A stretch of 64,000 bases of DNA from an uncultured Acetatifactor sp. (lineage in GTDB: Bacteria; Bacillota; Clostridia; Lachnospirales; Lachnospiraceae), in NCBI GenBank assembly GCA_947627535.1, contig CANQWM010000007.1:48523-112522 (forward strand). Direction: 5' to 3'. Below the pieces are notes generated by a model that was not told the origin of the DNA, searched no databases, and saw only the letters and a list, made by a program, of their open reading frames with translations. The first letter of the stretch is position 1, and every line of letters starts with the position of its first letter. The position numbers and the translations under genes are program-made. Positions 55,207 to 63,294 of this stretch are shown here, piece after piece.

Positions 55207-55494
55207 TCAGAACATACCGGCTTTTTTCCTGAAGCTTTCAATATTTTCCGCCCTGGCGGCGATCAAAAGCCAGCGGTCCAGCGTCTCCGGGTCCTGCTCC
55301 TGCAGGATCCTCCGCCGGAGAAAATCAGGCACGGTTCCTGCCTCCGACAACAGGCGCAGAACACTTTCTGCTTTTCCCTCCGCCTTTCCTTCCTCTCTTC
55401 CTTCCGCCCGCACATAATCTTCCCGGGCATTCCTGTCGCGGATCTCCTTCAGCTTTGCCTCATGCATCATCCGCAGCGTCTTTTTGAGACTCAT
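55207..55494 (-). CDS. Possible intragenic RpnS-like C-terminal protein (95 aa)
   Basis: An in-frame ATG at codon 200 of the Rpn gene is preceded by AGAGG with exactly 8 nt between. The product would be the 95-residue helical C-terminus. In E. coli Rpn systems such an internally translated C-terminal protein blocks the toxic full-length nuclease. Here it is inference from sequence only. Confidence 0.4.
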   Translation of the reverse strand: MSLKKTLRMMHEAKLKEIRDRNAREDYVRAEGREEGKAEGKAESVLRLLSEAGTVPDFLRRRILQEQDPETLDRWLLIAARAENIESFRKKAGMF

Positions 55495-56091
55495 AACCCT
55501 GACCTCTTTGATTGCCTCCAATATCCCCGGATTTTTCGTTCCCGCCTCCAGCATATCCAATTCCTCCTCCGTCTCCGCATTAAACAACCGGATCCATTCG
55601 TCCACCCGGTCCGCACCGTTCAGCGTCTTGGTCAGTTCAATCACATGTATCTCCATCCTGTCCGAAAACGCCTGTCCGGCCCCGTCCTGCAGACGATACA
55701 CCTTATGATACTCTGGCCGGCTGTCCAGCTTAAAGCCAAGAATGTTGATACAGATGCATTTTTTCAGCTTATCGTATTTCTGCCCTGTCAACAGCCCATC
55801 CGCAAACATCTTTGACCAGTAGAACAGGCTGCGCCTGTCCCAGTAAGCCATCATCTCAATTTGCAGTTCAACGTTCACCCTGCTGTCGCCGTTCAACTCC
55901 ATGACTACATCCAAGATACCCTGCTTTTGTTTCCAGTACTGCTTCCACAGCCAGGTGTCAGTCAAACGCACCGAACGGATCTCTTCCGGCAGAATCCCCA
56001 GTACATCGCTGATGAAACGCCGACGCACCTCCTCATTGCGGAACAGATACTTAAAACTGAAGTCGTACTTTAATGAAATGATCTTTCCCAT
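55207..56091 (-). CDS. Rpn/PD-(D/E)XK family nuclease (PDDEXK_2)
   Basis: 294 residues. The nuclease core is at 8-~110 with Asp61 (GILDVVMELNG) and the ELQ motif Glu75-x-Gln77 (NVELQIEM). YDFSFKYLF at the start is the family hallmark. The C-terminal ~95 residues are helical, with a charged EGREEGKAEGKAE stretch. AGGAGG lies 3 nt before the ATG at 56091. It is the most divergent of five Rpn-type genes in the next 8 kb. An in-frame ATG at 55494 has its own ribosome site (see separate entry). Confidence 0.9.
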   Translation of the reverse strand: MGKIISLKYDFSFKYLFRNEEVRRRFISDVLGILPEEIRSVRLTDTWLWKQYWKQKQGILDVVMELNGDSRVNVELQIEMMAYWDRRSLFYWSKMFADGLLTGQKYDKLKKCICINILGFKLDSRPEYHKVYRLQDGAGQAFSDRMEIHVIELTKTLNGADRVDEWIRLFNAETEEELDMLEAGTKNPGILEAIKEVRVMSLKKTLRMMHEAKLKEIRDRNAREDYVRAEGREEGKAEGKAESVLRLLSEAGTVPDFLRRRILQEQDPETLDRWLLIAARAENIESFRKKAGMF

Positions 56092-56838
56092 TCTCCTCCT
56101 GTTTTGCAGGAAAAATAACAGGATGCCTTCGAATCCTGAAACTCCTGCTTTTAAATTGTAAAGTGGTTTTAAAAGCATAAATTTCAGAATCATAAGACAA
56201 AAGAATTTGTTTTACAAAAATAGAATAAGTATGCTTTGCGTAAATAATAACATGGAATGTTGGGAAATGCAAGAAAAACTTTTTAGAGGCAGCTCTGAAA
56301 GGTAAAATCCAAAAAAGCAAGCGATTGCAGAAATGGAACTTATGAATGTGAATAACTTCCTAATTTTTACAAAAAACTCAAAATCGGGAAATTTTGAGGT
56401 GTCCGGGCAGGCTATAATAGAATTTACCTTTCAAAACTGGACATAGAAAAATTTTGCTTTACATTCTGTTCTGCCTGTGTTATTATCAGTCTGTCTTATT
56501 CATGGCCCTATGGGCCGTCAGGTTTACGGTTTAGGCACTTCGCCGGATCTTCCAAAACAGGGAATGTTGTTTCATAAATGGGCAGTTTACCATGAAGGGC
56601 AAAATGTCTATGGCATGGATTGCATTCAGGCAGCTGTGACGTTTACGATAGTTTTAACATTTGCGTTCTATATTTACATTTAAAATTTGTGACTTTGTGA
56701 CGTTCTAAGCACCAGAAGTGTCTTTCAAACCATCCTAAAAGCATATTTCAAGATCAGTACAAAATTCATTCAGAATCAAGCCGAGATAAAATTTTACAAA
56801 GAAAGCAAAGATCTGCTTTACCGGAGGAAAAACAGCTT
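56092..56838. other. 747-bp AT-rich intergenic region of the Rpn island
   Basis: Contains a perfect -10 TATAAT at 56413-56418 and a block (56456-56560) clearly homologous to the leader of the third Rpn copy (60081-60182). A second block (56743-56838) resembles the leader of the 61903 copy (61769-61902). A 68-codon open frame (56477-56683) spans the first block but has no ribosome site or family, so it is not called. Confidence 0.6.
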
Positions 56839-57924
56839 ATGCAGAAAAACAACTTACAGCAGTACTTTCCCATGATCCGCACCCGCAAGGAACTCTTGCG
56901 GGAAATTGGCGCCAATCCCTCTCTTAAAACTCTGTTCAACACCCTGAAACCGGAACGTCAGCAGGAATTTCTAAACTTCTGCAGCGGCGTCAAGGGCGTC
57001 CGTCTTCTCTATGACTCTTTTTTTAAGGCAGTCATGGATCCCGACCGGGATCCCTCTCGGCTGAGCAACTTCCTCTCGCTTCTCCTGCAGCGGGAGGTCA
57101 CCGTCGTCTCCGTCCTCTCCAACGAAGGACAGATTATGCCGGACACGTTAGTCGTCATGGATCTCATCGTACGCCTGGAAGACGGCAGCATCACCACCGT
57201 GGAGGTCCAGCGTTACGGCTACGCCTTCCCCGGCCAGCGGGCCGCCTGCTATTCCGCGGATATGCTGCTTCGGCAGTACAAGCAGAAGCGGGATCAGGCC
57301 TCCGCCAACGGGACGCGCATGAACTACCGGAGCCTGCGCCCCGTCTATACCATCGTCCTGTACGAATTCAGCCCCGCAGAGTTCCACGCTTATCCTGGGG
57401 ATTATGTCCATCGTTTTCATCAGGTTTCCAATACGGGATTAGAGATGGACCTATTGGAGGAATATATCTTTGTTCCCCTTGACATCTTAAAGGAAATCGT
57501 CCAAAATAATGGTATCAGAAACCAATTGGAAGCCTGGCTGGCATTTTTCTGCATGGATGAACCGGAGTGGGTCCTGAAATTGTCAGAAAACTATCCCATG
57601 TTCCGAAAGATGTATGAGGAAGTCTATGAGATGTGCCGGAATCTGGAAGGAGTGATGCAGATGTATTCCAAAGAACTGAGGGAATTGGACAGCAACACGG
57701 TACAGTACATGATCGACCAAATGCAGGAGGACCTCAACAGGAAGGACGCTGAACTCAGCCAAAAAGATACCCAGCTCAGTCAAAAAGATAAAAAGATCCG
57801 GGATCAAGCCGCAAAGCTCCACCAGAAGGATACCCAACTCAGCCAGCAGGAAAACCTGATTGATGAATTACAGAACCAGATTCAGGAAATGAAAAAACTT
57901 CTGGTCGAAAATCCGAATCTTTAA
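56839..57924 (+). CDS. Rpn-type PD-(D/E)XK nuclease, copy A
   Basis: 361 residues. The core (~55-235) has FFKAVMDPDRDPSRLSNF, Asp108 (VVMDLIVRLEDG) and Glu122-V-Gln124 (TVEVQRYG). The C-terminal ~75 residues form a coiled coil of seven heptads with L-S-Q-K-D consensus. Members of this group act as DNases that promote recombination or limit phage. GGAGG lies 10 nt before the ATG. Apart from the C-terminal tail it is almost identical to copies B (60203) and C (61903). An internal start lies at 57661. Confidence 0.9.
   Translation: MQKNNLQQYFPMIRTRKELLREIGANPSLKTLFNTLKPERQQEFLNFCSGVKGVRLLYDSFFKAVMDPDRDPSRLSNFLSLLLQREVTVVSVLSNEGQIMPDTLVVMDLIVRLEDGSITTVEVQRYGYAFPGQRAACYSADMLLRQYKQKRDQASANGTRMNYRSLRPVYTIVLYEFSPAEFHAYPGDYVHRFHQVSNTGLEMDLLEEYIFVPLDILKEIVQNNGIRNQLEAWLAFFCMDEPEWVLKLSENYPMFRKMYEEVYEMCRNLEGVMQMYSKELRELDSNTVQYMIDQMQEDLNRKDAELSQKDTQLSQKDKKIRDQAAKLHQKDTQLSQQENLIDELQNQIQEMKKLLVENPNL
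57661..57924 (+). CDS. Possible intragenic RpnS-like coiled-coil protein, copy A (87 aa)
   Basis: An in-frame ATG at codon 275 is preceded by AAGGAG (57647-57652) with 8 nt between. The product MYSKELRELDS... is all coiled coil with seven heptads. The same arrangement is kept in copies B and C. Confidence 0.45.
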   Translation: MYSKELRELDSNTVQYMIDQMQEDLNRKDAELSQKDTQLSQKDKKIRDQAAKLHQKDTQLSQQENLIDELQNQIQEMKKLLVENPNL

Positions 57925-58367
57925 ATATGGACTGAAACCGTGAAATCAGATCAGAACACTTTTGATAAACACATCGTCAAAGACGATTAGCGCCTGTTGA
58001 CTGTCTTTTGTTTCAAGTGTTACCAATGCAGACATTCTTCCCTCACGGGGCGTTTCCGCATCCCGTCTGTATTCCTGTGTTTTCTGCCGCCAGTTCTGCT
58101 GCCTTTCCTTACAAAGGTCATGCTTTAGAATGAAAGAACACCCTGTCTCCATGGATAACACCATTATTGACACACATGCGACTTGTTTCTTTAAACTCTG
58201 ATGAAATCCTTAAGAATTCCTGACCGCTTGATTATATTGTCTGTATTTTACCAGTACTTACAGATTATCTCCAAAGACCTGCACTGGCAACCATCTATTT
58301 TCGCAGCCCGTTATGCCATCCTGGCTTCTTCCCGGCGCTGCTCCCATCTTCCAAAGGAGCTTTTCTC
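57925..58367. other. 443-bp intergenic region
   Basis: No gene, terminator or promoter is clear. A 75-codon open frame on the minus strand (57946-58173) has no ribosome site or family and may be a remnant. Confidence 0.5.
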
Positions 58368-59246
58368 ATGGACAACAAATCTCTTTATCTTTCTTCCGTC
58401 TCCTTGGACATCCTGGCCAATTCCCAGGGTCCCCTTCCTGTCCCCATGACAAACGATTACCTCTTTCGCGCCCTGATGCAGCGCAACAACAAGGTCCTGC
58501 GCGCCCTCATCTGCTCCCTACTGCACCTTGACGTCGACGATGTGACATCCGTCGTCATCTCCAATCCCGTCGAGCTGGGCGAGGATATGGACGACAAAAC
58601 CTGCATCCTTGACATCAAGGTCTGTCTCAACGGACATACCGTCATCAATCTGGAGATGCAGGTGGTCAACGAGGGGAACTGGCCCGAGCGTTCCCTCTGT
58701 TACCTGTGCCGCGCCTTTGACAATTTAAACCGCAGCCAAAACTATGAGGATATCCGTTCCGCCATCCAGATCGGATTGCTGAACTTTACGCTGTTTCCGG
58801 ACAGCCCGGAGTTCTTTGCCAATTACTACATGGAAAATATTAAAAATCATAAAATATATAGTGACAAACTTCGTCTGTCTGTGTTAGACTTAACTCAGAT
58901 CCATTCCGCCACCGAAGAGGACCGCGGCTACGGACTTGACCGCTGGGCTGCTTTTTTCAGGGCCGCTACATGGGAGGAATTGAAAATGCTTGCAAAAACC
59001 GATCTCAATCTACAGGAAGCCGTTGTCACAGTGCGCCAGCTGACGCAGGACGAAAAGATCCGTCAGATGTGCGAAGCCCGGGAGGACTATTACCGCCGTA
59101 CCGCCGGGCGGGAGGCGCTTCTTCAGAAGACCACTCTGGAACGGGATCAGGCCGTTGCGGAGCGGGATCAAGTCGTCGTTGAACGGGACCAGCTCTTACA
59201 GCTTTTGAAATTGCACGGGATAGATATCAACGAAAAGAGCACTTAA
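58368..59246 (+). CDS. Rpn-type PD-(D/E)XK nuclease, second family
   Basis: 292 residues. The core has MTNDYLFRALMQ near 27, Asp82 (LDIKVCLNG) and Glu96-M-Gln98 (NLEMQVVNEG). The C-terminus has heptads of the E-R-D-Q type (~260-280). AAAGGAG lies 9 nt before the ATG. It differs clearly from copies A-C. An internal start at 58986 has a strong site. A 108-bp decayed copy of its coding part lies at 61343-61450. Confidence 0.9.
   Translation: MDNKSLYLSSVSLDILANSQGPLPVPMTNDYLFRALMQRNNKVLRALICSLLHLDVDDVTSVVISNPVELGEDMDDKTCILDIKVCLNGHTVINLEMQVVNEGNWPERSLCYLCRAFDNLNRSQNYEDIRSAIQIGLLNFTLFPDSPEFFANYYMENIKNHKIYSDKLRLSVLDLTQIHSATEEDRGYGLDRWAAFFRAATWEELKMLAKTDLNLQEAVVTVRQLTQDEKIRQMCEAREDYYRRTAGREALLQKTTLERDQAVAERDQVVVERDQLLQLLKLHGIDINEKST
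58986..59246 (+). CDS. Possible intragenic RpnS-like protein, second family (86 aa)
   Basis: An in-frame ATG at codon 207 is preceded by GGGAGG (58972-58977) with 8 nt between. The product starts MLAKTDLNLQEAV and ends in E-R-D-Q heptads. Confidence 0.45.
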   Translation: MLAKTDLNLQEAVVTVRQLTQDEKIRQMCEAREDYYRRTAGREALLQKTTLERDQAVAERDQVVVERDQLLQLLKLHGIDINEKST

Positions 59247-59539
59247 ATCTGCATACTTACTACCAAATTTGATATGCAGAAACAGGTACATTGATTTTCC
59301 CCCCCGGTTTTCTGACCAGCGGCACCTTCTTCGTACCACATCAAGACGTTTAAGAGCAGCACAAACCCGTCAGGCTCATGTAAAAAGATCTTGATCCGGT
59401 CACAGCGTTTGCCACAGAAAATAATGGAACATCCATCCGGTTCCGTCTTCAAATGGTTCAACACGATCGCACACAGGCCGTCAATGGACTTGCGCATGAC
59501 CGCAGGCAAGCGCCGGACGCTGGCGGCATCTTCAATCAT
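59243..59539 (-). pseudogene. tnpB: IS66 tnpB (Orf2) remnant
   Basis: 98 residues. VMRKSIDGLCAIVLNHLK, SIIFCGKRCDRIKIFLHEPDGF and LLLN match IS66 TnpB proteins (about 115 residues); the N-terminus is diverged and the C-terminus runs into foreign sequence. A GGAGG ribosome site lies 5 nt before the ATG at 59539. Upstream on the same strand a short open stretch could be the end of tnpA. The transposase tnpC is absent, so the element is dead. Confidence 0.78.
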
Positions 59540-59580
59540 GTGTCACCTCCTGCAGAATCTCAATCAGCAAAGCGCCGGAT

Positions 59581-60000
59581 AAACTGTCGCGATCCACGAA
59601 CCTGTTCAAACTATTTTTATCTGATGTAGGGCTGCTGGCGTCGATGTATATAAACGGCATACAGATAAAAATTTTGAATCACAAAAAGGATATAAACTAC
59701 GGCACGGTGTATGAAAATGCGGTGGCTCAGGAACTTAGGGCACACGGATTTGAGCTGTATTACTTCAACAGTCGCAAGCAGGGAGAGCTTGATTTTTTAA
59801 TTGAGCGGAACGGCGAGATCCTGCCAATAGAAATAAAATCCGGCAAAAATTACACAAGGCACGCCGCACTTACGTCTGTTATGGCAAACCCGAATTATGC
59901 GGTCCCGGAGGCGTATGTCTTCCAGAATGACAACGTTCGGCAAAATAACATATTACCCGATTTATATCCTTATGTTTTTGGAAAAAGACAGGCTGAATGA
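59581..60000 (+). pseudogene. C-terminal remnant of an AAA_14/DUF4143 ATPase
   Basis: The open frame reads NLFKLFLSDVGLLASMY, then YGTVYENAVAQELRAHG, YYFNSRKQGELDFLIERNG and LPIEIKSGKNY, the DUF4143 domain that ends bacterial AAA_14 ATPases of about 400 residues. The ATPase half is missing: homology starts near 59581, at the IS66 remnant. The internal ATG at 59644 is not a real start. Confidence 0.85.
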
Positions 60001-60202
60001 GAAGATGATTTACAAGCTTGACCTTAATGCTTTGAAATGAAAAAAATAATTTATTATCTTGTTAAATTTTTAAAGTTTTGGTTTACATTCTGTTTTTTTG
60101 TATATTATCAACCTGTCTTATTCATGTCCCTGCGGGGCGTCAGATTTAAGCTTTGCGGCGTTTCGCCGTACCTTCCAAAACAAGCCAAAGGAAAAACAAC
60201 TT

Positions 60203-61330
60203 ATGAAGAAAAACAACTTACAGCAGTACTTTCCCATGATCCGCACCCGCAAGGAACTCTTGCGGGAAATTGGCGCCAATCCCTCTCTTAAAACTCAGTT
60301 CAACACCCTGAAACCGGAACGTCAGCAGGAATTTCTGAACTTCTGCAGCGGCGTCAAGGGCGTCCGTCTTCTCTACGACTCTTTTTTTAAGGCAGTCATG
60401 GATCCCGACCGGGATCCCTCCCGGCTGAGTGACTTCCTCTCGCTTCTCCTGCAGCGGAAGGTCACCGTCGTCTCCGTCCTCTCCAACGAAGGACAGATTA
60501 TGCCGGACACGTTAGTCGTCATGGATCTCATCGTACGCCTGGAAGACGGCAGCATCACCACCGTGGAGGTCCAGCGTTACGGCTACGCCTTCCCCGGCCA
60601 GCGGGCCGCCTGCTATTCCGCGGATATGCTGCTTCGGCAGTACAAGCAGAAGCGGGATCAGGCCTCCGCCAACGGGACGCGCATGAACTACCGGAGCCTG
60701 CGCCCCGTCTATACCATCGTCCTGTACGAATTCAGCCCCGCAGAGTTCCACGCTTATCCTGGGGATTATGTCCATCGTTTTCATCAGGTTTCCAATACGG
60801 GATTAGAGATGGACCTATTGGAGGAATATATCTTTGTTCCCCTTGACATCTTAAAGGAAATCGTCCAAAATAATGGTATCAGAAACCAATTGGAAGCCTG
60901 GCTGGCATTTTTCTGCATGGATGAACCGGAGTGGGTCCTGAAGTTGTCAGAAAACTATCCCATGTTCCGAAAGATGTATGAGGAAGTCTATGAGATGTGC
61001 CGGAATCTGGAAGGAGTGATGCAGATGTATTCCAAAGAACTGAGGGAATTAGACAGCAACACGGTACAGTACATGATCGACCAGATGCAGGAGGACCTCA
61101 ACAGGAAAGACGCTGAACTTAGCCAGAAGGATGTACAGCTCAATCAGCAGCATGTCCAGCTCAGCCAGAAAGATACTCAACTCAGTCAGAAAGATAAAAT
61201 GATCCGAGATCAAGCCGCAAAGCTCAACCAGAAGAATACCCAACTCAGCCAGCAGGAAAATCTGATTGCTGAATTACAGAACCAGATTCAGGAAATGAAA
61301 AAACTTCTGGCCGAGAATCCGAAGCTTTAA
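60203..61330 (+). CDS. Rpn-type PD-(D/E)XK nuclease, copy B
   Basis: 375 residues, nearly identical to copies A and C over the first ~300 residues. The nuclease residues are Asp108 and Glu122-V-Gln124. The coiled-coil tail has nine heptads, two more than copy A, including QLNQQHV. The ATG at 60203 is preceded by AAAGG at a long 13-nt distance; the open frame continues upstream to 60098 without a better site. An internal start is at 61025. Confidence 0.9.
   Translation: MKKNNLQQYFPMIRTRKELLREIGANPSLKTQFNTLKPERQQEFLNFCSGVKGVRLLYDSFFKAVMDPDRDPSRLSDFLSLLLQRKVTVVSVLSNEGQIMPDTLVVMDLIVRLEDGSITTVEVQRYGYAFPGQRAACYSADMLLRQYKQKRDQASANGTRMNYRSLRPVYTIVLYEFSPAEFHAYPGDYVHRFHQVSNTGLEMDLLEEYIFVPLDILKEIVQNNGIRNQLEAWLAFFCMDEPEWVLKLSENYPMFRKMYEEVYEMCRNLEGVMQMYSKELRELDSNTVQYMIDQMQEDLNRKDAELSQKDVQLNQQHVQLSQKDTQLSQKDKMIRDQAAKLNQKNTQLSQQENLIAELQNQIQEMKKLLAENPKL
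61025..61330 (+). CDS. Possible intragenic RpnS-like coiled-coil protein, copy B (101 aa)
   Basis: An in-frame ATG at codon 275 is preceded by AAGGAG (61011-61016) with 8 nt between. It has nine heptads. Confidence 0.45.
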   Translation: MYSKELRELDSNTVQYMIDQMQEDLNRKDAELSQKDVQLNQQHVQLSQKDTQLSQKDKMIRDQAAKLNQKNTQLSQQENLIAELQNQIQEMKKLLAENPKL

Positions 61331-61342
61331 AAATAGCTTTTA

Positions 61343-61450
61343 TTAAACTTATCTCAGATTCATTCCGCCAATGAAGAACACCGCAGCTACAGTCTTGACC
61401 GCTGGGTCTCCCTTTCAAAGCCGCTACATGGGAGAAATTAAAATGCTTGC
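61343..61450 (+). pseudogene. Decayed fragment of the second Rpn family
   Basis: About 108 bp matching 58886-58990 of the gene at 58368, with scattered changes and frame loss. It encodes remains of the ATEEDRGYGLDRW region. It directly follows copy B. The rest of 61331-61902 holds no gene; its last ~130 bp (61769-61902) is the conserved leader of copy C. Confidence 0.75.
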
Positions 61451-61902
61451 CACAGATATCGGAAAATAACAAATTGTTGTTCCCGTGTGCCGACTGATAA
61501 GATGCTCGTTCGCTATCAAGATCAGATTTTATTGTCTTCCTCTCTCCGTATCCCTGTCCTTCTCTTTATTTTGCTGTCTGTTCCCATTCTGAAACTTACG
61601 TTCCAAGTTCTTTCGTATGTTCCAAGTTCTTCCATTGCAGCTGATTACCTCCGCCTACATTAACTCGGATCTCAGCCTAAAACTGAAATTGTTGTCATTT
61701 AACCACTCCCTGCCGATGCTGTCGCACTCCGTCTGCAAGATCTTTATCTCCCTCAGACGATCAAAAAGCATATTTTAAGCTCAACTCAGAACCCATTCAG
61801 CAACAAATTGAACAAGGAAAGCTATGGCCAGGTGCCTGACAGGCTGTCTCTCCGTTTATCAGACATCTGAACGCCGCAAATTCACCGGAGGAAAAACAAC
61901 CT

Positions 61903-63009
61903 ATGCAGAAAAACAACTTACAGCAGTACTTTCCCATGATCCGCACCCGCAACGAACTTTTGCGGGAAATTGGCGCCAGTCCCTCTCTTAAAACTCTGTT
62001 CAACACCCTGAAACCGGAACGTCAGCAGGAATTTCTGAACTTCTGCAGCGGCGTCAAGGGCGTTCGTCTTCTCTACGACTCTTTTTTTAAGGCAGTCATG
62101 GATCCCGACCGGGATCCCTCTCGGCTGAGCAACTTTCTCTCGCTTCTCCTGCAGCGGGAGGTCACCGTCGTCTCCGTCCTCTCCAACGAAGGACAGATTA
62201 TGCCGGACACGTTAGTCGTCATGGATCTCATCGTACGCCTGGAAGACGGCAGCATCACCACCGTGGAGGTCCAGCGTTACGGCTACGCCTTCCCCGGCCA
62301 GCGGGCCGCCTGCTATTCCGCGGATATGCTGCTTCGGCAGTACAAGCAGAAGCGGGATCAGGCCTCCGCCAACGGGACGCGCATGAACTACCGGAGCCTG
62401 CGCCCCGTCTATACCATCGTCCTGTACGAATTCAGCCCCGCAGAGTTCCACGCTTATCCTGGGGATTATGTCCATCGTTTTCATCAGGTTTCCAATACGG
62501 GATTAGAGATGGACCTATTGGAGGAATATATCTTTGTTCCCCTTGACATCTTAAAGGAAATCGTCCAAAATAATGGTATCAGAAACCAATTGGAAGCCTG
62601 GCTGGCATTTTTCTGCATGGATGAACCGGAGTGGGTCCTGAAGTTGTCAGAAAACTATCCCATGTTCCGAACAATGTATGAAGAAATCTATGAGATGTGC
62701 CGGAATCTGGAAGGAGTGATGCAGATGTATTCCAAAGAACTGAGGGAATTGGACAGCAACACGGTACAGTACATGATCGACCAAATGCAGGAGGACCTCA
62801 ACAGGAAGGACGCTGAACTCAGCCAAAAAGATACCCAGCTCAACCAGCAGTATGTCCTACTCAGCCATAAAGATAACCAGCTCAGTCAGAAAGACGCTCA
62901 ACTCAGCCAGAAGGACGCCCAGCTCAGCCAGAAGGAAAATCTAATCGCGGAATTACAGAACCAGATTCAGGAAATGAAAAAACTTTTGGCCGAAAATCCG
63001 GATCTTTAA
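61903..63009 (+). CDS. Rpn-type PD-(D/E)XK nuclease, copy C
   Basis: 368 residues, nearly identical to copies A and B to about residue 300 (a few substitutions such as R-T-M-Y-E-E-I near 260). Asp108 and Glu122-V-Gln124 are kept. The tail has eight heptads, with QLSQKDA repeated. GGAGG lies 10 nt before the ATG. A decayed second 3' end follows at 63012. An internal start is at 62725. Confidence 0.9.
   Translation: MQKNNLQQYFPMIRTRNELLREIGASPSLKTLFNTLKPERQQEFLNFCSGVKGVRLLYDSFFKAVMDPDRDPSRLSNFLSLLLQREVTVVSVLSNEGQIMPDTLVVMDLIVRLEDGSITTVEVQRYGYAFPGQRAACYSADMLLRQYKQKRDQASANGTRMNYRSLRPVYTIVLYEFSPAEFHAYPGDYVHRFHQVSNTGLEMDLLEEYIFVPLDILKEIVQNNGIRNQLEAWLAFFCMDEPEWVLKLSENYPMFRTMYEEIYEMCRNLEGVMQMYSKELRELDSNTVQYMIDQMQEDLNRKDAELSQKDTQLNQQYVLLSHKDNQLSQKDAQLSQKDAQLSQKENLIAELQNQIQEMKKLLAENPDL
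62725..63009 (+). CDS. Possible intragenic RpnS-like coiled-coil protein, copy C (94 aa)
   Basis: An in-frame ATG at codon 275 is preceded by AAGGAG (62711-62716) with 8 nt between. It has eight heptads. Confidence 0.45.
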   Translation: MYSKELRELDSNTVQYMIDQMQEDLNRKDAELSQKDTQLNQQYVLLSHKDNQLSQKDAQLSQKDAQLSQKENLIAELQNQIQEMKKLLAENPDL

Positions 63010-63011
63010 AG

Positions 63012-63294
63012 ATGAACCGGAGTGGGTCCTGAAGTTGTCAGAAAACTATCCCGCGTTTCTAACGATGTATGAATAAATCTATGAGATGTGCAGGGATCTG
63101 GGAGTGATGCGGATGTATTCCAAAGAACTGAGAGAATTGGACAGCAACACGGTACAGTACATGATCGACCAAATAAATGCAGGAGGACCTTAACAGGAAT
63201 GACGCCCAACTCAGCCAGCAGGAAAATCTGATCGCTGAATTACAGAACCAGATTCAGGAAATGAAAAAACTTTTGGTCGAAGATCCGGATCTTG
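63012..63294 (+). pseudogene. Decayed 3' fragment of a fourth Rpn copy
   Basis: It repeats the last ~370 bp of copies A-C with an in-frame stop at TGAATAAAT, small indels and a deletion of most heptad units. It ends in the conserved ENLIAELQNQIQEMKKLL tail. It is probably left by recombination between copies. Confidence 0.88.

What the first reader, a model, noticed from the sequence alone, without database searches (positions are those of the whole stretch)
55207..63009. All five Rpn nuclease genes carry an in-frame internal start with an identical 8-nt Shine-Dalgarno spacing
In each intact gene an ATG at codon 200-275 is preceded by AGAGG, GGGAGG or AAGGAG with exactly 8 nt between: ATG at 55494 (minus), 57661, 58986, 61025 and 62725. 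Each would make a C-terminal protein of 86-101 residues, mostly coiled coil. Copies A-C are near-identical and so are not independent, but the gene at 55207 and the one at 58368 belong to clearly different lineages and keep the arrangement. In E. coli Rpn loci the C-terminus is translated alone as RpnS and inhibits the toxic RpnL, giving a phage-defence toxin-antitoxin in one gene. I am not aware of this being described for Clostridial Rpn arrays.
Basis: partly seen in the sequence, partly recalled or inferred. Interest (0 to 1): 0.85.

Follow-up and report, generated by a model that had tools for sequence, protein, structure and literature searches.

The report
Antitoxin genes hidden inside nuclease genes
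All five nuclease genes in this stretch of a bacterium whose closest named relatives are Lachnospiraceae contain a second ribosome-binding site and start codon, and four of them also contain a promoter-like signal, which together are predicted to make the protein's tail on its own as a likely antidote; the arrangement is known from E. coli, but here most tails carry seven-residue repeats whose number differs between copies.

Summary
The five internal ATGs exist as described. In the window alone they are not beyond chance: synonymous shuffles give such a site in the second half of these genes with probability 0.40-0.94. Across the family the signal is strong: 100 of 109 canonical ATGs at one column (46 expected) and 26 of 26 A-type ATGs at another (9 expected) have a Shine-Dalgarno sequence; held-out genes agree, 35 of 38. 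For gene 55207 the conserved start is 55554, not 55494. The D (58368) and A (56839, 60200, 61903) lineages also carry a promoter-like -35/-10 upstream, whose codons head the list of synonymously constrained columns; held-out genes show it in 28 of 38. Tail repeats have period 7 in D and A, period 4 in 55207's lineage; A-type pairs with nucleases at least 90% identical differ in tail length only by whole heptads, 17 of 17. Zhong et al. 2023 already showed RpnL/RpnS in E. coli and an RpnS from a C. difficile gene, so this is a new variant of a known kind. Expression and antitoxin activity were not tested.

The parts
55207..56193 (-). Rpn-type nuclease gene, tetrad-repeat lineage ('g'); likely true start at 56091 (codon 35 of the ORF, after AGGAGG)
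   Evidence: PF12784 E 2.8e-41; TIGR01784; codon 35 ATG after AGGAGG
55207..55554 (-). predicted internal small protein of the 55207 gene, 115 aa, from ATG 55554
   Evidence: column of D codon 207, SD in 100 of 109 ATG against 46.4 expected; coordinates
55563..55568 (-). internal Shine-Dalgarno AGGAGG, 8 nt before ATG 55554
56839..57924 (+). Rpn-like nuclease gene A (heptad-repeat 'A' lineage), 361 aa
   Evidence: PF12784 E 1.3e-15
57479..57507 (+). promoter-like TTGACA-N17-CAAAAT inside gene A
57647..57652 (+). internal Shine-Dalgarno AAGGAG of gene A
57661..57924 (+). predicted internal small protein of gene A, 87 aa, heptad repeats
58368..59246 (+). Rpn-type nuclease gene D (heptad-repeat 'D' lineage), 292 aa
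   Evidence: PF12784 E 3.1e-34; TIGR01784
58861..58890 (+). promoter-like GTGACA-N18-TAGACT preceded by TGTGT (looks like an extended -10) inside gene D
58973..58977 (+). internal Shine-Dalgarno GGAGG of gene D
58986..59246 (+). predicted internal small protein of gene D, 86 aa
60200..61330 (+). Rpn-like nuclease gene B (A lineage), 376 aa
   Evidence: PF12784 E 1.4e-15
60843..60871 (+). promoter-like TTGACA-N17-CAAAAT inside gene B
61011..61016 (+). internal Shine-Dalgarno AAGGAG of gene B
61025..61330 (+). predicted internal small protein of gene B, 101 aa
61903..63009 (+). Rpn-like nuclease gene C (A lineage), 368 aa
   Evidence: PF12784 E 8.2e-15
62543..62571 (+). promoter-like TTGACA-N17-CAAAAT inside gene C
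62711..62716 (+). internal Shine-Dalgarno AAGGAG of gene C
62725..63009 (+). predicted internal small protein of gene C, 94 aa

Best explanation
Each of the five nuclease genes contains, ahead of its C-terminal tail, a second in-frame ribosome-binding site and start codon and, in four of the five, a promoter-like element, from which the tail is predicted to be made separately and to block the full nuclease as its likely antitoxin. Shown by sequence: the SD-ATG unit, its position, its selection at synonymous sites across relatives, the promoter-like element in two of three lineages, and the periodic repeats. Inferred: transcription and translation from it, binding of the small tail to the tail of the full protein through a coiled coil, inhibition of the nuclease, release on phage infection, and specificity set by heptad number so that neighbouring copies do not neutralise each other.
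For: Synonymous shuffle: canonical column 100 of 109 ATG with SD against 46.4+-4.4 (61 of 67 against 28.0 at <65% identity); A-type column 26 of 26 against 9.4+-2.4 (17 of 17 against 6.5). Apart from what appears to be the genuine N-terminal start column of the g lineage (26 of 30 against 12.0), no other ATG column tested is comparably enriched. Canonical Glu codons at the site followed by G: GAG 140, GAA 8, against 664:779 elsewhere (Fisher 3e-34). A-type residues before the start change (PKELI, PEELI, PRRLI, LEGVM) while an AGGAG-like SD stays. SD and ATG co-vary (both 107, SD only 6, ATG only 10, neither 11, 2 gaps; p 7e-7). Codon scan that knows nothing of promoters: the top 8 of 291 D-type columns are four in the extended -10, two in the -35, the SD Glu and one codon just downstream of the -10; in A-type the top of 347 is the CTT of TTGACA, 19 of 19 against 3.2. 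Held-out genes: SD-ATG 19 of 20 D and 16 of 18 A (10.2 and 7.1 expected); promoter pattern 11 of 20 and 17 of 18 (0.11 and 1.58 expected). Repeat periods and heptad steps. Of 20 stop-bounded C-terminal-only ORFs, 17 keep an in-frame SD-ATG. E. coli precedent with internal start, internal transcription start, antitoxin and repeat-set specificity, and an RpnS from a C. difficile gene.
Against: No expression data for this organism. The three A-lineage genes are near-identical, so the window holds three independent cases, not five. The promoter-like signal is absent in the g lineage (z between -3.3 and +1.6) and the pattern is missing in 9 of 20 held-out D genes, 7 of them paralogues of one genome that keep TAGACT but not the -35. 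Co-loss of promoter and SD is weak (D p 0.047, A p 0.23). In 23 of 136 canonical and 4 of 32 A-type genes no SD of >=5 nt was found within 3 codons of the site, and in the class-wide sample only 10 of 19 genes had it there. The A-type tail is predicted as one 71-residue helix, unlike the three-helix RpnAS. The predicted A structure has only weak fold matches (best EcoO109I, E 6.5e-3, none at E<=0.001). The scans correct for relatedness only by identity cut-offs.
Confidence: 0.74

Rival explanations
1. The SD-like codons are a by-product of a conserved Glu-rich protein motif (WEELK-M, EEELD-M, PKELI-M) and no internal protein is made.
For: Within the window alone shuffled codons give such a site with probability 0.40-0.94.
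Against: Synonymous choice is far from neutral at the two conserved columns and at their Glu codons (Fisher). In A-type the residues vary while the nucleotides stay. Among genes with the same W-E motif, those with Met use GAG (57 of 57) while those without use GAA in 3 of 5.
Confidence: 0.07
2. The internal SD serves as a pause site that helps the nuclease domain fold before the coiled coil is made, not as a start.
For: It sits near the end of the nuclease domain, before the repeats.
Against: A start codon is kept at the right distance: ATG within 2 codons in 32 of 32 A-type genes, and SD co-varies with ATG in canonical genes. A promoter-like element upstream is not expected for pausing. C-terminal-only ORFs keep the SD-ATG in 17 of 20.
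Confidence: 0.06
3. The small protein is made but is a structural subunit or activator of the nuclease (like Cas11d from cas10d) rather than an antitoxin.
For: Another gene-within-gene makes a complex subunit (Cas11d, introduction of PMC10327210). Nothing here tests inhibition.
Against: E. coli RpnA, RpnB and RpnP2 are inhibited by their own small proteins. Tail-only copies exist, which suits an antitoxin at least as well as a subunit.
Confidence: 0.13

Closest known systems
E. coli RpnA-E and RpnP2, RpnL/RpnS toxin-antitoxin (Zhong et al. 2023, PMC10327210)
   Same: PD-(D/E)XK-type nuclease gene whose C-terminus has its own RBS and start and is translated alone; internal transcription start; repeats of variable number in the tail; gene arrays; separate tail-only copies
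   Different: Here the start lies further from the C-terminus: tails of 86-115 aa in the window against 49-60 aa in rpnA, B, C and E (Met244 of RpnA is from the paper, the others I placed by the same SD-ATG). Heptad repeats in two of three lineages; A-type tail predicted as one long helix; -35/-10 motif shared within a lineage. Whether the E. coli proteins match PF12784 was not tested.
C. difficile rpn gene tested in the same paper
   Same: Clostridial gene; RpnS seen when cloned in E. coli and eliminated by RBS/start mutations
   Different: The text read here gives neither the gene nor the site, so homology of that site with either position here is unknown
Cas10d/Cas11d from one gene (named in the introduction of PMC10327210)
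   Same: smaller protein from an internal start of a larger gene
   Different: It is a complex subunit, not an inhibitor

Membership tests
RpnL/RpnS gene-within-gene toxin-antitoxin | PD-(D/E)XK nuclease domain with intact catalytic residues | tested here: met
   PF12784 in all five; D and ExQ invariant in alignments A1 and A2 (D82/E96/Q98 of D; D108/E122/Q124 of A). TIGR01784 hits the 55207 and 58368 genes but not A-C at E<=0.001. That these residues are the catalytic ones is recalled.
RpnL/RpnS gene-within-gene toxin-antitoxin | conserved internal SD and start codon in the C-terminal part | tested here: met
RpnL/RpnS gene-within-gene toxin-antitoxin | internal transcription start upstream of the small ORF | tested here: inconclusive
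   promoter-like element under synonymous constraint in A and D lineages, none found in g; no transcript data
RpnL/RpnS gene-within-gene toxin-antitoxin | repeats of variable number in the tail, of four residues | tested here: inconclusive
   period 4 in the g lineage, period 7 in D and A; copy number varies
RpnL/RpnS gene-within-gene toxin-antitoxin | compact three-helix RpnS fold (7TH0) | tested here: not met
   for A only: predicted helices 269-284 and 287-357. The g and D full-length proteins found no related PDB chain by sequence (best E 0.87 and 0.61); their folds were not predicted.
RpnL/RpnS gene-within-gene toxin-antitoxin | toxicity of the full protein and inhibition by the small one | not testable with these tools
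   needs expression
RpnL/RpnS gene-within-gene toxin-antitoxin | phage defence | not testable with these tools
   PADLOC scan of g, A and D gave nothing for g and D and two weak coiled-coil matches for A

The most novel reading that the evidence does not exclude
Two Rpn lineages have each acquired, at different places, a complete hidden antitoxin gene (promoter, ribosome-binding site and start) inside the nuclease gene. The antitoxin is a coiled coil whose heptad number is a private recognition code, so that near-identical nucleases in one array (tails of 87, 94 and 101 residues here, 108 and 115 elsewhere in the genome) are mutually insulated toxin-antitoxin pairs.
Probability: 0.4. Interest if true: 0.76.

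Novelty: new variant of a known kind. Interest (0 to 1): 0.63.

Why it matters
It shows from sequence alone, by synonymous-site selection and a held-out test, that the gene-within-gene arrangement is the usual state of this nuclease family in the genus sampled (95 of 109 genus genes together with 3 of 3 window genes at <85% identity), where such genes are commonly annotated as transposases. It gives exact coordinates for the predicted hidden promoters and starts, so the idea is directly testable. The heptad variant turns the four-residue repeats of E. coli Rpn into a more general principle: tail length in whole structural units as a possible self-recognition code. That would explain how a genome can keep several near-identical toxins at once.

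Tried and rejected
Chance or protein motif only: rejected at the family level, although the window alone does not exclude it. Pausing instead of initiation: disfavoured. Promoter in the g lineage: looked for, not found. Phage origin: the D and A proteins were each sought in viral contigs by close-relative patterns and no relative was found. Clean co-loss of promoter and SD: tested, weak. Heptad steps in less similar pairs: the rule fades (A 17 of 17 at >=90% nuclease identity, 28 of 56 at 80%, 36 of 104 at 70%; D 9 of 16, 17 of 42, 39 of 201; g multiples of 4: 9 of 15, 17 of 38, 36 of 95); the pairs share genes and are not independent. That the five A-lineage tails of this genome all differ in length could be luck; I did not test it against a null. 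Fold search gave only weak PD-(D/E)XK hits. Hybridisation energies printed for column 232 are meaningless (too little sequence upstream) and are ignored. Dropped before the counts: ORFs not bounded by stops on both sides, shorter than 235 aa, with N in the DNA or below 50 bits (254 profile-matched ORFs gave 195 gene records, some of one gene fetched twice, plus the 5 of the window; 168 remained at <85% identity). Papers: in five searches of this library (listings with starts of abstracts) PMC10327210 was the only paper on Rpn internal starts; its supplements could not be read.
Full report
What is there. The window lies in a 2.85-Mb assembly (G000) that has 12 PF12784 matches. The best named match of its 58368 protein is a locus of an uncultured Acetatifactor sp. 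(89% identity), and 40 of the 57 named loci bear Lachnospiraceae in the title. The five genes carry the PDDEXK_2 domain. They form three lineages, called here g (55207, minus), D (58368) and A (56839, 60200, 61903, also called A, B and C). NCBI's Rpn model TIGR01784 hits g and D but not the A lineage at E<=0.001. The D and E-x-Q residues are invariant in the alignments.

The observation. All five internal ATGs are in frame and 8 nt behind an SD-like word. Taken alone this is not surprising: shuffling synonymous codons within each gene gives an SD-ATG in its second half with probability 0.94 (g), 0.55 (A), 0.58 (D), 0.57 (B) and 0.40 (C). The spacing is quantised by the reading frame: 5, 8 and 11 nt in 7, 50 and 7 of 64 canonical sites.

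The family test. I collected homologues from 101 genomes of the genus, own genome included (A-type), 196 of the class and 57 named loci, and fetched stretches; only part of the listed matches was fetched. Of 200 gene records, 168 remain at <85% identity: 136 canonical (mostly g and D) and 32 A-type. Scanning every alignment column with at least 8 ATGs, the canonical column of D codon 207 has an SD of >=5 nt in 100 of 109 ATGs against 46.4+-4.4 in shuffles, and the A-type column of codon 275 in 26 of 26 against 9.4+-2.4. A column near the N-terminus, apparently the true start of the g lineage, gives 26 of 30 against 12.0. The result holds at <65% identity (61 of 67 against 28.0; 17 of 17 against 6.5). 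Allowing 3 codons either way and ATG/GTG/TTG, 113 of 136 canonical and 28 of 32 A-type genes have the unit: window 2 of 2 and 1 of 1, genus 68 of 78 and 27 of 31, named 33 of 37, class 10 of 19. Canonical Glu codons at the site that are followed by G are GAG in 140 of 148, against 664 of 1443 elsewhere (p 3e-34). The smaller A-type count is 11 of 13 against 137 of 264 (p 0.02).

Two positions. In the joint alignment the canonical site and the A site are different columns (645 and 678). In A the residues before the start vary (PKELI, PEELI, PRRLI, LEGVM) while an AGGAG-like word stays. That the two sites arose separately is inferred.

Initiation rather than pausing. In canonical genes SD and ATG occur together (107 both, 6 SD only, 10 ATG only, 11 neither, 2 gaps; p 7e-7). 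Among genes with the W-E motif, GAG goes with ATG in 57 of 59 and GAA with no ATG in 3 of 3. All 32 A-type genes have an ATG within 2 codons.

A hidden promoter. In the stretch 200-100 nt upstream of the start, sigma-70-like scores exceed synonymous shuffles in D (z 7.2) and A (z 7.1) but not in g. In 19 of 19 A-type genes (<65% identity) the best site sits at the same column, with a -35 of the form TTGA[CT][AG] and, 17 nt on, a -10 ending in AAT in 17 of 19; it mostly ends 147-168 nt before the start. In 33 of 43 D-type genes the best site is at one column, [ACG]TGACA-N18-TA[GA]..T; its -10 ends 95 nt before the start in nearly all of these and is preceded by GTG, a codon used in 39 of 42 genes. 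A scan that knows nothing of promoters ranks these codons first. In D the eight most constrained of 291 columns are four in the extended -10, two in the -35, the SD Glu and one codon just downstream of the -10. In A the first of 347 is the Leu codon of TTGACA, CTT in 19 of 19 against 3.2 expected; SD codons and the Asn codon of the -10 (third base T in 19 of 19 against 10.0) are also among the top eight. In the window the elements lie at 57479-57507, 60843-60871, 62543-62571 and 58861-58890. The A pattern occurs four times on the plus strand of the 64-kb window and never on the minus; three are the elements named, and the fourth (58717) lies in gene D. The D pattern, with looser spacing, occurs twice on the plus strand: the element named and 58167, upstream of gene D.

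Held-out test. Patterns derived from the earlier genes were applied to 38 further genes from 40 of 42 newly fetched loci (the two tail-fragment loci left out), none 95% or more identical to a used gene. SD-ATG: 19 of 20 D and 16 of 18 A (10.2 and 7.1 expected). Promoter pattern: 11 of 20 D and 17 of 18 A (0.11 and 1.58 expected). Of the nine D misses, seven are paralogues of one genome that keep TAGACT and most of the extension but lack the -35. Loss of promoter and loss of SD go together only weakly (both / promoter only / SD only / neither: D 65/5/16/5, p 0.047; A 42/5/1/1, p 0.23).

The tails. Lag autocorrelation shows period 4 in g and period 7 in D and A. The A-lineage tails of this genome are 87, 94, 101, 108 (a tail-only ORF on another contig) and 115 residues, and that of a close relative in genome G096 is 66: all equal to 3 modulo 7. 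The nuclease parts of A, B and C are 98.2-99.0% identical in DNA without a gap; their tails are 88-94% identical, with 21 or 42 gap columns. For A-type pairs with nucleases at least 90% identical, 17 of 17 length differences are multiples of 7 (1 further pair is equal). D gives 9 of 16; g gives 9 of 15 multiples of 4 and 1 of 15 of 7. The AlphaFold model of A (28 sequences, mean pLDDT 83) ends in a 71-residue helix, 287-357, with Met275 in the preceding helix.

Tail-only copies. In the 31 loci examined I count by hand 20 stop-bounded ORFs that match only the C-terminal side; 17 keep an in-frame SD-ATG. The misses are L084, L257 and a second piece of the broken L243 copy that begins after the site. 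At least two of the 17 (L107, L243) are cut short by a stop soon after the start. Fragments at contig ends are left out. Of ten A-type fragment loci looked at, seven also keep the promoter pattern; of two D-type, one does. I drew no conclusion from the scarcity of N-terminal-only fragments, because the listings are capped and many lie at contig ends. Zhong et al. describe separate rpnS genes downstream of E. coli rpnE and rpnC.

Mechanism. In E. coli, RpnAS is a dimer in crystals, joined through its long first helix, where the repeats are inserted in other RpnS proteins; RpnAS binds RpnAL and blocks its DNA cleavage; one extra repeat in RpnC abolishes recognition; RpnP2 protects against T-even phages; internal transcription starts exist. 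The simplest model here is the same, with a coiled coil of matching heptad number between tail and full protein. All steps after the gene anatomy are inferred.

Novelty. The principle is published, including a C. difficile example, so this is not a new kind. I found no report of heptad tails or of conserved internal promoter motifs in the library searched.

Noticed in passing
61331-61417: Remnant of a D-type gene (D residues 169-197, with a stop) between B and C, so the array looks like a repeated A-type plus D-type unit.
   Followed up: partly
63005-63293: Broken A-type tail fragment directly downstream of gene C, with an in-frame stop; reminiscent of ypaA behind E. coli rpnE.
   Followed up: partly
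59243-59539 and 59644-60000: IS66 TnpB-like fragment (minus) and a DUF4143 fragment inside the array, signs of mobile-element traffic.
   Followed up: no
56092-56193: The first 34 codons of the 55207 ORF are probably not translated: codon 35 ATG follows AGGAGG and starts the conserved part.
   Followed up: no
L086 (G000:C1), minus strand ORF: Tail-only A-type ORF in the same genome, 108-residue tail, keeps AAGGAG and ATG but not the promoter pattern.
   Followed up: partly
canonical alignment, codon 61 of 55207 / codon 48 of 58368: Strong preference for a third-base C, mostly ATC (z 6.5 in g, 4.7 in D), in the N-terminal part of the nuclease domain, without an explanation.
   Followed up: no
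L172 (G138:C20): A distant class-level Rpn gene has a perfect TTGACA-N17-TATAAT about 100 nt before the homologous position.
   Followed up: no
G085 genome, loci L127, L129, L270-L277: Ten D-type paralogues in one genome with tails of 82-141 residues, several in heptad steps within what look like subfamilies (82, 96, 110, 117; 134, 141).
   Followed up: partly
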